Positions 2,684 through 6,825 of a stretch of DNA of 64,000 nt are shown piece after piece. Within the stretch, counting starts at the first letter, position 1. Each line of letters begins with the position of its first letter. Both the position numbers and the translations under genes were made by a program. The notes beneath the pieces are model-generated. The model saw nothing but the letters and a program-made list of their open reading frames with translations, was not told where the DNA came from and did not search any database. This DNA is from Irpex lacteus (taxonomy: Eukaryota; Basidiomycota; Agaricomycetes; Polyporales; Irpicaceae), in assembly GCA_001986395.2 (NCBI GenBank), contig MQVO02000007.1:1178001-1242000 (forward strand), read 5' to 3'.

Positions 2684-4796
2684 CTAAACCCGGCAGTTCA
2701 GACTTGCGTCCCATTCCTCCGAGCCTACGCCTTCAGCAACAATGAAGAGATCATTGGGGTCGTATTTCTTCTTGATGGAAAGTAATTTGTCGTAGTGCGA
2801 TCCGAAGAACGTTTCCTTGGGGTCGGCATAATAGAGCGAGGCCTATATAGGAGCAATAGATGAGACCTTTTATCATACTTAGGTACCGCAAACGCATGGA
2901 ACAAACTTACTTCGTTGAAGTAGGAGCCAGAGTCGGGGGCCAGAGCCTCGAGTGCACGAGTGTACTCCTTGACCTTCTCCTTAGCCGCAAGGATTTCTTC
3001 GACAGGCGCACCATCCTCCCATAGTTGACCGGTAACAGCGTGCACAAGTGCTTTGCGCCATGCTGGGTTGATACCGGCAGAATCGGGGTCGACTTTAGAG
3101 ACAGCACCACCTGCAACCATGCTGAATGAAGTACGTGCAACGGGCAATGAGTACGATGCTCGGTTTCCGCTCTTCCGAATAACAACTCACATGTAGGAAA
3201 TTTCGGGGCCCTGTGCCAAGAGTGTGTCCGCTATCTTCACATGATCTGTTTCGAAGAGGGTCCTGGGCAGGAGCCGGGAAGTAACCTCGATGTTGATACC
3301 TGTCTCGGATGAGCTAGGGCGTATAACCGTCCTCTCGAAGTCTTTGAACAGCTGAGGCGCGGACGTTTTGGCATTGACCACAGTAAGAGTGTCGCCACCC
3401 TCAGAGGATGAGTTGGCTGCAAGACTCCGTGCGAAATCAAAGAAGGGGTTGATTGTCGCGTTCGCGTCAGCCCAGGAGGCATAGTTTAGGAGAATAAGAG
3501 TAAGCCCCTGCTGGGGTGCCGGTGGACCCACGGACACGGAGGGATATCCTGCCCATCCGGCGTCAGCCAAGGACGGGGTTTGACGGACAAATTCAGTGAA
3601 AAGTGTCTTGAGTAGCGGACTGGTGGTGTTGGTGTTGGTCGTGTTGACGGTAGCAGTGAACTGGGCGAACACGAGAGGGTTGGCAGGATGCGTCTGGTAT
3701 GAGACAGAAGTCACGATGCCGTAGGTACTGCCTCCCCCTCCGCGCAAAGCCCAGAAGAGATCACTGTTCTGGTACGCGTTTGCAGTAAGGTGTTCTCCCG
3801 TAGACGTGACGACAGTGAATTGAACAGCATTGTCTGCACCTATATGTTATATATTGGTATGAAACACCGTCAGTAAAAGTTTATCGGGCTGGAAAGACAC
3901 GCGAAATACTAACCGAGACCAAACGTAGGGGCCAAAACGCTGTGACCTCCACCCCCGATCCATCCTCCGGCGGAGCCTACGGAGCCTTTGGAAGTGACCC
4001 CGCCTACTATGTCACGGCCTTGAGCATAAACGGCGTCGTACGCTTCATGCCATTGCACTCCAGCACCGAGGGTGATAACTTAAGTAGTCCGTCAGCAGAC
4101 TGAAGTCACGGGTCGAATATTCCGAAGGACTTACTATCCTGCAGAGACGAGTTGGAAGATGCCGGAGCTCCAGTGGGGGTGAACGTGTCGTGGTAGCTTA
4201 TATTCTTCATATTATGCGTCCAGATCATGAACGCCCCGCGAGCAGTGCTACGCCCAAGATAGTCGTGGCTAAGAGTGTAGAGTGAGACATAGTACTAGTT
4301 CGCGTAGAGTTGTCACTCACCCTGTGTTCTTGACTACAACACGAAGGTTATGTTCAACAGCAAACGCGACTGCCGCTTGAATATCCTCCGGGGTACGAAC
4401 GTCCGCGCCTAGTATCGGTACGTTACCTTGGCCACAAGGAATACCGAGGGTGTTATTCATAGGACACTCTTCAATGGTGCCGTTGGGGAAGATGAAGGCC
4501 TCCCAGTTCCTCTCCTGCATCTGGCCCGGATGGTCAGTGCTGAACGTCGGGTCGGTCCATCCTTGCTGAACCGCTGTGCAATTTCCTGAGGGAGCACCAG
4601 GTGGGTAACATACAGCGGCGAGAGGAGTGGGAGTGATGAAAGGCTGAGACAAGTTGGCCTGAAGTGCCGCGAACTCGTCGTAGGGTGGCCAGCAGCTATC
4701 AGTTGACAGGCAGCGGCAGCTACTGTTCTGTGCGCGTACGAGCAACACTCCGAGCTCAGCGAGAGCTAAGAGCGCAAAGAACTTCAGTTGAGCCAT
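2684..4796 (-). CDS. Secreted FAD-binding oxidoreductase with BBE domain
   Basis: This is a flavoprotein oxidase of the FAD_binding_4/BBE (berberine-bridge, 6-hydroxy-D-nicotine oxidase-like) family. Exons on the minus strand are 4796-4321, 4268-4135, 4078-3914, 3839-3191, 3121-2911 and 2842-2684, giving 597 residues in one frame. The start codon opens a clear signal peptide (MAQLKFFALLALAELGVLL) that ends near VRAQ, so the protein is probably secreted or vacuolar. The mature N-terminus is cysteine-rich and has several NxT/S glycosylation sites. The FAD domain contains GHDYLGRS, where the histidine is the usual covalent FAD attachment residue, and GGWIGGGGHS. The C-terminal BBE motif reads YDPNDLFIVAEGVGSEEWD. 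Related enzymes include fungal isoamyl-alcohol-oxidase-like proteins; the substrate cannot be told from sequence. It is divergent from the PRPP synthetase gene. Confidence 0.9.
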
Positions 4797-5423
4797 TGTT
4801 GAGAGACTCGAGGGTGTCTGAACGATCTGAGTAGAAGTAATTCCTTGAGTTTTTATATCCTTTCAAAGGCTGTGACTTACAAAGAACTTTCCATGGTTTG
4901 TGTAGCAGCGCAGTCATCGTATCGCCCAACTTCAATCCAGGTCGACTTGGAAACCTTGCACATCCTCGGTCAGCGGGCTAGTCACTCCGGCGCCATTTGC
5001 AGCAACATGACGGCTTTAGCAGCTGCAGTTGACAGTGCGCAGCCGATATTGTATACAAGAAGTGCACGCAAGCTTTCCGCAGCCATCCGGCAAATGATGT
5101 TTACGAGGCTATGAGAGCTACGCAAGCACAGGGCTGGCGGTGGTTTAGCGACAACCCTGTAGACCTGCCAAATTTGGACGTTCGGCCGTATTACTTTGAT
5201 AAGCAGGATTAGACAAGGATTAGATAATCAAAACGGTGTTCCATTTTCCCAATCAAGCGCCCGATGTCGGCTGTGGCGCAAACGCGGGGAGCTGATTGGC
5301 GAGTGTCAAAGAAAATATCCTCAGCCTTGCTCCTACGCTGTCCCGCGGCGACCTCCCTTTCCTCTTCTCCCTTCCGTTCTTTTCTCTATCTTTATTTCTT
5401 TTATTTCATGGACTATCTGCAAC
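4797..5423. promoter_or_regulatory. Divergent promoter region, FAD oxidase / PRPP synthetase
   Basis: About 630 bases between two divergent starts. A long pyrimidine tract (about 5350-5410) lies directly upstream of the PRPP synthetase start and resembles the CT-rich core promoters common in fungi. I recognise no other specific site. Confidence 0.45.
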
Positions 5424-6825
5424 ATGTTTACTGGTAACGGAATCAAAATCTTCACTGGTGAGTCTCTCAGCGACGTTCTGCATTGCATCGATAAATACTT
5501 ACTGATGAACGTGCGTGGTGTGGTCTTTAGGGACGAGCCACCCAGAACTCGCTGAAATCGTCGCTCGTCGGTGCGTCATGTCCCTCACACGATAGACTCT
5601 TCGACGCGCAAACTTACATGGTCTCTCGTCTTCTGCAGTCTTGGAATCCCTGTCGGCCGTGCCGAAGTGCTCAAGAGCGGGATAGGCGAGAGTCATGTAC
5701 GCATCATAGAATCCGTACGGGAAGACGACGTCTACATCATCAACACTGGCTGTGGCGAAGTAAACACTTCGCTCATCGAGCTCTGCATCATGGTGCACGC
5801 CTGCAAAATTGCGAGTGCAAAGCGCATAACGGCGGTGGTGCCCCTCTTTCCCTACGCCCGCCAGGACAAGAAGGACAAGAGTCGTGCACCGATCACGGCG
5901 AAGCTAGTGGCCAACATGTTGCAGAAGTCGGGGTGTGACCATGTTATTGTGAGTTTGTTCTCCTTGGTTGTCGGAGGCTTCGGTGGCTAAGTACACGCAC
6001 GTTCGTCCTGTGCCTTCCTTTTCTGTAGACGATGGACCTACACGCATCCCAAATACAAGGATTCTTTGACGTCCCTGTAGACAAGTGAGCATTATCATTA
6101 ATGCGCAAGCGTAATGCACACAATACTCACGCAACGTTGCCCTGCCCATAGCGTAAGTTCATGCCATTTCATATGTTTGCCGCGTTCACCAAATTCACCA
6201 ACTCTTTTGCATGTGATTTCACGTAAAGTTGTACGCGGAGCCGTCTGCCATTCAGTACATCACCAACAACTTCCCGTTGGAAAACGTTGTGATTGTGTCG
6301 CCCGACGCAGGAGGTGCGAAACGGTGCGTACTCTTGACATCATCACTTCGGTGGTTTATAGCTCTTCCGAATGCATACTGACGCCGATCGTTTCCCAGAG
6401 CAACATCGATAGCGGACCGCCTCGGTGTCGATTTTGCTCTCTTCCACAAGGAGCGTAAGAAGGCCAACGAAGTCTCGCGGATGGTGCTCGTAGGTCATGT
6501 CAAGGACAAGGTCGCTATCCTCGTAGATGACATGGCCGATACCTGTGGCACGCTCTGTCTTGCGGCGAAGCACCTGTCGGAAGCGGGAGCGTCAAGAGTG
6601 TTCGGACTTGTCACGCACGGCATCCTCAGCGGCAACGCGCTCAAGACTGTATCGGAGAGCGTTCTGGAGAAGCTTGTTGTCACGAACACGTTGCCACAAG
6701 ACGAGAACGTTGCAAAATGCCCGAAAATCGAGGTTATCGATATCGGGAACGTGTTGGCGGAGGTCATAAGACGAAGTCACAACGGCGAGAGCATATCGAA
6801 GCTCTTCCACGAAGTGCCATTTTAA
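5424..6825 (+). CDS. PRS: Ribose-phosphate pyrophosphokinase (PRPP synthetase), with a one-base exon
   Basis: The enzyme transfers pyrophosphate from ATP to ribose 5-phosphate to make PRPP for purine, pyrimidine, histidine, tryptophan and NAD synthesis in the cytosol. Exons are 5424-5457, 5531-5570, 5639-5948, 6029-6084, 6152-6152, 6229-6323 and 6399-6825: 963 bases, 320 residues, the usual length. Visible motifs are [10 protein letters not shown], the ATP-loop [14 protein letters not shown], the catalytic-flap context [24 protein letters not shown] and the PRPP-binding loop [10 protein letters not shown]. Between exons ending DVPVD-AA and starting TTG-TAC (LYAEP), exactly one base is needed to restore the invariant VDNLYAEP. 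A lone C at 6152 has a perfect acceptor (CATAG) before it and donor (GTAAGT) after it. Without it the exon total is not divisible by three. Family assignment is certain; the microexon is deduced. Confidence 0.95.

What the first reader, a model, noticed from the sequence alone, without database searches (positions are those of the whole stretch)
6085..6228. A single-nucleotide exon in the PRPP synthetase gene
The exon ending at 6084 stops two bases into a codon (AA), and the next recognisable exon starts at 6229 with TTG (Leu of LYAEP). One base is missing for the invariant Asn of VDNLYAEP. The 144 bases between are twice the usual intron length here. In the middle sits CATAG-C-GTAAGT: an acceptor, a lone C at 6152, and a consensus donor. 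This makes introns of 67 and 76 bases, and AA+C+TTG gives Asn-Leu exactly. The CDS is divisible by three only with it. One-base exons have been reported very rarely (a plant APC11 case is known to me).
Basis: partly seen in the sequence, partly recalled or inferred. Interest (0 to 1): 0.88.

Follow-up and report, generated by a model that had tools for sequence, protein, structure and literature searches.

The report
One-base exon in a fungal gene
In the wood-rotting fungus Irpex lacteus, a gene for a basic nucleotide-making enzyme appears to contain an exon of a single DNA letter, and public gene models in many mushrooms break at the same spot, so the oddity is probably old and widely missed.

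Summary
Exon 4 of a PRPP synthetase gene ends at 6084, two bases into an Asn codon; the next exon starts at 6229. Among the GT and AG sites of the region, the only in-frame two-intron solution is 67 nt + C(6152) + 76 nt. The nine stop-free single-intron solutions all delete VDN and use poor donors. The result reads VDNLYAEP, as in solved PRPS1 structures. The public Irpex lacteus protein equals this model minus VDN.

The break is not private. Among the relatives listed by two capped searches, 85 of 91 genome-annotated proteins do not read VDN here and deviate in several ways; 71 of 72 transcript-like ones read VDN, one VDS. The 120 listed paralogue-type proteins all read DN. In four species two annotations are identical except at this point. 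Six read N-V-S or N-V-G, as expected if a GTNRGN donor follows the one-base exon.

Best reading: a real one-nucleotide exon, probably conserved across much of the Agaricomycetes, spliced by successive intron definition. The kind is known (plant APC11 and VPS55, Fusarium CYP621A); this is a new member with unusually broad inferred conservation. I saw no RNA reads and no DNA of other fungi.

The parts
5424..5457 (+). PRPP synthetase exon 1 (ATG)
5531..5570 (+). exon 2
5639..5948 (+). exon 3
6029..6084 (+). exon 4, ends two bases into the Asn147 codon (AA)
6085..6151 (+). intron upstream of the one-base exon, 67 nt, GTGAGC...CATAG, branch-like CTCAC at 6126-6130
   Evidence: donor at 32nd and acceptor at 37.5th percentile of 456 self-trained introns; branch-like motif
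6152..6152 (+). one-nucleotide exon C, third base of Asn147
   Evidence: only in-frame two-intron GT-AG solution among the sites enumerated
6153..6228 (+). intron downstream of the one-base exon, 76 nt, GTAAGT...TAAAG
   Evidence: donor at 66th percentile in pre-mRNA context, 92nd after removal of the upstream intron; acceptor weak, 8th percentile
6229..6323 (+). exon 6, begins TTG (LYAEP)
6399..6825 (+). exon 7, ends TAA
6077..6084 (+). decoy donor GTAGAC inside exon 4; the public I. lacteus protein P0001 implies it was used (152 nt intron, VDN lost)
   Evidence: score -3.82; reference donors range from -1.26 to 5.76, partly because training discarded donors below -1; P0001 = model minus VDN

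Best explanation
The gene (ribose-phosphate diphosphokinase, PRPP synthetase) contains a constitutive one-nucleotide exon, C at 6152, between two ordinary short U2-type introns. Shown from sequence: it is the only GT-AG arrangement found that keeps the frame and the conserved VDNLYAEP. Inferred: the arrangement is shared by most Agaricomycetes, because listed genome annotations there break at this codon while transcript-like sequences are intact. Inferred mechanism: fungal splicing by intron definition treats the two introns one after the other. The upstream intron (strict CTCAC branch-like site, CATAG acceptor) most likely goes first. That joins AA to C and places AAC directly before GTAAGT, which improves the second donor. 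The second intron is then removed to give AAC|TTG. Skipping the C gives a frameshift and an early stop. The order is my weakest step; either order works on paper.
For: Frame and protein. No acceptable single-intron alternative: nine stop-free in-frame ones (donors GT or GC from 6030 to 6130, AG ends 6150-6299), all without VDN, donors scoring -2.56 to -3.82. The public I. lacteus protein is the model minus VDN and comes from a contig of a different length (1,585,557; 1,613,832 here), so another record broke at the same place. Relatives: of 91 genome-annotated proteins, 6 read VDN, 28 have N to K, 22 K plus W/Y/C, 16 VDN deleted, 7 K plus other insert, 6 N-V-[S/G] insert, 2 N plus other insert, 4 other. 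Of the internal indel events in these 91, 57 lie at residues 143-147 and 1 at 179; the 72 transcript-like proteins have indels only at their ends. Paired annotations in four species are identical in all 315 flanking residues and differ only here. Paralogue control: 120 of 120 listed proteins intact. The closest transcript-like protein P0002 (305 residues identical to each of the two 317 aa Irpex proteins) reads VDN. The second donor rises from 66th to 92nd percentile once the upstream intron is gone.
Against: No RNA read of I. lacteus was seen. The TAAAG acceptor is weak (8th percentile). Intron 2 has no strict CTNAY branch motif, only TTCAY forms. DNA of other fungi was not seen, so conservation is inferred from how annotations fail. 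'Transcript-like' is my label from source tags, contig length and the intact ORF, not a stated source type; two of the 72 lie on longer contigs. Six genome-annotated proteins read VDN and were not explained. Nine annotated inserts (7 K plus other, 2 N plus other) and four other forms were not accounted for one by one. The reference splice set is self-trained, has a built-in score floor, and did not itself recover this gene.
Confidence: 0.94

Rival explanations
1. A single intron with one non-canonical end (GT-AA or TG-AG) adds a G instead of C, so the residue is Lys (VDKLYAEP).
For: 28 of 91 public genome annotations read VDK at the normal position without an insert, as this would give.
Against: 0 of 72 transcript-like relatives read K. 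In two species the same gene is annotated both as VDK and as VDK plus an insert, flanks identical (Dichomitus squalens, Pleurotus ostreatus). PRPS1 structures and 120 of 120 listed paralogue-type proteins have N. VDK is what results if a gene model is forced over a one-base gap using the donor or acceptor G (inference).
Confidence: 0.02
2. A one-base sequencing or assembly error hides an ordinary single 144 nt intron.
For: A single missing base would produce the same frame break; 31 of 456 self-trained introns are at least 140 nt.
Against: The public I. lacteus record, on a contig of different length, and I. rosettiformis (P0001, P0004) show the same break, and 85 of 91 listed annotations fail here. 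The TAG-C-GTAAGT block in the middle would then be a coincidence (0.69% for its class).
Confidence: 0.01
3. A spliceosomal twin intron (stwintron): the whole 144 nt is one complex intron removed in two steps.
For: Two adjacent introns with an AG and a GT one base apart resemble nested introns; stwintrons are described in fungi (listing and abstract starts).
Against: Removing all 144 nt leaves the frame broken; one base must be kept.
Confidence: 0.01
4. The one-base exon is real but optional: regulated skipping tunes PRPP synthetase by producing a frameshifted RNA subject to decay. (Compatible with the best explanation.)
For: Skipping gives an early stop; the second acceptor is weak.
Against: No skipped form was seen among the 72 transcript-like proteins, but a list of near-full-length proteins would hardly show one.
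Confidence: 0.1

Closest known systems
Arabidopsis APC11 single-nucleotide exon (PMC4674806; passages and Discussion seen)
   Same: Constitutive one-base exon between two introns, mis-annotated in GenBank; authors suggest intron definition combined with successive removal
   Different: Plant gene, base A; tested with constructs in protoplasts; here base C, a metabolic enzyme, fungus, no RNA test
Plant VPS55 1-nt microexon (PMC8831610; passages seen)
   Same: One-base exon with a GTRAGT donor behind it, conserved in diverse land plants and missing from reference annotations
   Different: Forms with and without the exon exist in several plants; no alternative form seen here
Fusarium CYP621A one-nucleotide exon (PMC12940212; parts 1 and 2 of 3 of the text seen)
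   Same: Fungal nuclear gene, 139 nt apparent intron, restores a conserved motif, gene models wrong at the site
   Different: Ascomycete, base G, one P450 subfamily in one genus, with read support; here a PRPP synthetase gene with signs across many Agaricomycete genera
Mitochondrial one-base exons: placozoan cox1 (PMC5436844) and Ophiostoma rnl (PMC12308204), passages seen
   Same: One base between two introns
   Different: Organelle genes; in Ophiostoma the neighbours are group II introns, not spliceosomal ones
Small exons of Phanerochaete chrysosporium P450 genes (PMC1184071; passages seen)
   Same: Microexons in a white-rot basidiomycete
   Different: Shortest reported exon 6 bp
Stwintrons (PMC9024468 and others; listing and abstract starts only)
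   Same: Two successive splicing reactions at one site in fungi
   Different: They leave no exonic base; here one base is kept
Recursive splicing at ratchet points (recalled; mentioned in the PMC4674806 Discussion)
   Same: AG and GT nearly touching, introns removed one after another
   Different: Ratchet points leave zero bases (recalled); described for large introns

Membership tests
Single-nucleotide exon | One base flanked by AG acceptor and GT donor | tested here: met
   CATAG-C-GTAAGT at 6147-6158
Single-nucleotide exon | Base needed for frame and conserved protein; no better GT-AG model | tested here: met
Single-nucleotide exon | Two flanking introns of normal size with usable signals | tested here: met
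   67 and 76 nt; site percentiles 32, 37.5, 66 and 8; the last is weak
Single-nucleotide exon | Mature RNA contains the base | tested here: inconclusive
   Indirect: 71 of 72 transcript-like relatives read VDN, 1 reads VDS; no I. lacteus RNA seen
Single-nucleotide exon | Structure conserved in the DNA of related species | tested here: inconclusive
   Inferred from 85 of 91 listed annotations failing here and 6 N-V-[S/G] read-throughs; no DNA of other fungi was seen
Stwintron | Both introns removed with no exonic base left | tested here: not met
   Frame breaks without 6152
PRPP synthetase (ribose-phosphate diphosphokinase) | Full-length family match above curated cut-off | tested here: met
   TIGR01251 364 bits, cut-off 113; NF002320 384.6, cut-off 297; the other ten models matched stay below their cut-offs; PRPS1 structure 4lzn E 1.4e-133

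The most novel reading that the evidence does not exclude
A one-nucleotide exon has been kept in a core nucleotide-metabolism gene since an early ancestor of the mushroom-forming fungi, through polypore, agaric, bolete and russuloid lines, and most public genome annotations of these fungi misread the enzyme there. Reliable one-base splicing would then be an ordinary ability of the fungal spliceosome rather than a curiosity, and other such exons would be findable by the same signature (annotations that scatter at one codon while transcripts agree).
Probability: 0.8. Interest if true: 0.8.

Novelty: new member of a known kind. Interest (0 to 1): 0.72.

Why it matters
It adds a basidiomycete, housekeeping-gene case to a very short list of one-base exons, and suggests that such an exon can persist across a whole fungal class. 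It offers a natural test of how a spliceosome handles an acceptor and a donor one base apart. It also points to a correctable error in dozens of public protein records of a core enzyme, and to a simple way of finding further cases.

Tried and rejected
Intron training without homologues failed four times before a usable set was reached: candidate ranking drifted to long false introns, a first dynamic-programming gene finder merged nearly everything into one gene, and a stricter one found only 26 introns. One search gave 456, 267 and 177 introns at three penalties; I used the 456 set for percentiles. None of the three gene sets kept a gene over the PRPP synthetase locus. Training discarded donors below -1, so a donor such as GTAGAC (-3.82) falls below the whole set partly by construction (reference range -1.26 to 5.76). 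The percentiles are a rough guide.

Intron 1 and intron 2 are not detectably duplicates of each other: their local score was reached by 714 of 1000 shuffles. An exact genomic copy of the spliced junction (retrocopy) was looked for and not found. A second AG-C-GT (AAG-C-GTAATG, 6107-6116) was rejected because the upstream intron would be 25 nt.

Basidiomycetes outside the Agaricomycetes were not sampled: each protein search lists only the 120 best hits, so the third search went to the paralogue control. The viral and the bacterial/archaeal contig collections were not scanned, as they should not hold fungal genes.

Literature: the searches gave no title or abstract start that describes a one-base exon in PRPP synthetase or in a basidiomycete nuclear gene. 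Of one search's eight papers I looked at 'microexon' passages in three (PMC1184071, PMC3990503, PMC12308204); the other five were seen as listing only. PMC8208691 mentions the term only in its reference list. The library holds open-access papers only.

Full report
What is there. The window lies in a 44.3 Mb genome of 317 contigs. The gene at 5424-6825 (+) encodes a 320 aa ribose-phosphate diphosphokinase (PRPP synthetase): NCBIfam TIGR01251 at 364 bits against a cut-off of 113, and 'Ribose-phosphate pyrophosphokinase 1' structures at E about 1e-133 (that these are the human enzyme is recalled). The closest public protein is from Irpex lacteus, and it equals my model with the three residues VDN taken out; I take the organism to be I. 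lacteus or a very close relative.

The one-base exon. Exon 4 ends at 6084 with GACAA; the next exon begins at 6229 with TTG. The 144 bases between consist of a 67 nt intron, C at 6152 and a 76 nt intron, both GT-AG. With the C the coding sequence is 963 nt and the protein reads FFDVPVDNLYAEP; without it the frame breaks and a stop follows 20 residues after the Asn codon. Enumerating pairs of GT-AG introns of at least 40 nt (GT at 6061-6235, AG ends at 6080-6239) gives exactly one in-frame, stop-free solution, this one. Enumerating single introns (GT or GC donors at 6030-6130, AG ends at 6150-6299, at least 40 nt) gives nine that stay in frame without a stop through exon 6; all nine lose VDN, and their donors (GCATCC, GTCCCT, GTAGAC) score -2.56 to -3.82. 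The PRPS1 structures have FFDIPVDNLYAEP, and a second PRPP synthetase gene of this genome on contig 313 has GTGGACAACCTC in an uninterrupted reading frame.

Chance. In 20,000 dinucleotide shuffles of the 144 bases, YAG-Y-GTRNGY with at least 45 nt on both sides appears in 0.69%, the laxer YAG-Y-GT in 9.2%. The string CATAGCGTAAGT occurs 7 times in the genome against 8 for the reversed control, so the string alone proves nothing; it is its place that counts.

Splice signals. Against a self-trained set of 456 introns from 262 kb (penalty -4.5), the two donors fall at the 32nd (GTGAGC) and 66th (GTAAGT) percentile, and the two acceptors at the 37.5th (CATAG) and 8th (TAAAG). With the upstream intron removed, the second donor's exon side changes from AGC to AAC and its rank rises to the 92nd percentile. 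The upstream intron has a strict CTCAC branch-like motif whose A lies 22 nt before the intron's last base; the downstream one has only TTCAY forms. The reference set is unvalidated, was trained with a donor floor of -1, and kept no gene over this locus, so these are rough ranks.

Relatives. Two protein searches, each listing its 120 best hits, gave 163 distinct proteins. I split them by source label into 91 genome-annotated (NCBI, some also UniRef, nr or other tags; the I. lacteus record is one of them) and 72 transcript-like (only lgn or jgi labels; 70 of 72 on contigs of at most 1.9 kb, median 1138 bp, against a genomic span of 1402 bp from start to stop here). Of the 72, 71 read VDN and one VDS. 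Of the 91, 6 read VDN; the rest are 28 VDK, 22 VDK plus W, Y or C, 16 with VDN deleted, 7 VDK plus another insert, 6 VDN plus V[S/G]..., 2 VDN plus another insert, 4 other. In an alignment of all, 57 internal indel events of the 91 lie at residues 143-147 and one at 179; the transcript-like proteins have indels only at their ends. In Dichomitus squalens, Abortiporus biennis, Pleurotus ostreatus and Moniliophthora roreri two public annotations are identical in all 315 flanking residues and differ only here. So the failure belongs to the locus, not to the sequence quality of one genome.

The way they fail is informative (inference). VDK is what a forced single intron gives when the G of GT or AG is used as the missing base. 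K followed by W, Y or C is AAG TGG, TAY or TGY, as when exon 4 runs four bases into a GTR donor, which restores the frame. N-V-S and N-V-G are AAY GTN followed by AGY/TCN or GGN, as when the upstream intron is modelled correctly and the one-base exon runs on into its own donor. Deletion of VDN is what the GTAGAC decoy gives here. The seven other K inserts, the two other N inserts and the four 'other' forms were not worked out one by one. The six VDN records may be correct models, intron losses or transcript-derived; I could not tell.

Control. The paralogue's 120 best listed relatives (80 genome-annotated, 40 transcript-like) all read FFDxP[V/C]DNL (three of them CDN). The motif as such is not hard to annotate.

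Mechanism. An exon of one base cannot be defined across itself. Fungal introns are short and recognised as units (recalled), so successive intron definition is the natural model, close to the one suggested for APC11 (PMC4674806 Discussion). I favour upstream intron first, because it has the clear branch-like site and because its removal improves the second donor; the potato invertase 9 nt exon is reported there with the opposite order, so this is open. Skipping yields a frameshift and presumably decay.

Known or new. One-base exons are established for plant APC11 (PMC4674806) and VPS55 (PMC8831610) and for Fusarium CYP621A (PMC12940212, which calls itself the first in a fungal gene); mitochondrial cases are described for placozoan cox1 (PMC5436844) and for Ophiostoma rnl between group II introns (PMC12308204). 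For basidiomycetes, P450 microexons down to 6 bp are reported in Phanerochaete chrysosporium (PMC1184071). This is a new member of the kind. New in it are the host gene, the phylum as far as I could find, and the breadth of the inferred conservation. Seven literature searches showed no title or abstract start on it in the held library.

Limits. No RNA of this species and no DNA of other fungi was seen. Protein rows are representatives of 90% clusters and the best 120 of nearly 8,000 scored per search, so correctly annotated genome proteins may lie in clusters represented by other members or further down. Order-level names of the fungi are recalled.

Noticed in passing
L003 844-2189 (contig C313; gene on the minus strand of the locus): The second PRPP synthetase gene of this genome; the public I. 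lacteus protein for it (P0167, 320 aa) lacks or changes residues around GGAKRVTAIADKLGVEFALIHRQRI compared with my hand-joined model of 329 aa, so it too looks misannotated, at other junctions.
   Followed up: partly
6107-6116: A second AG-C-GT block (AAG-C-GTAATG) lies inside the upstream intron, too close to the donor to be used.
   Followed up: yes
G000 C35, C58, C66, C135, C188, C296 (L028-L032, L034): Six further copies of CATAGCGTAAGT in the genome; whether any sits between exons was not examined.
   Followed up: no
P0056: One transcript-like relative reads VDSLYAEP; Ser as AGC or AGT would still fit a one-base C or T exon after AG.
   Followed up: no
4317-4862 (-): An open frame with a signal-peptide-like start and the look of an FAD-linked oxidoreductase (impression only, no search made) lies next to the gene on the other strand.
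   Followed up: no
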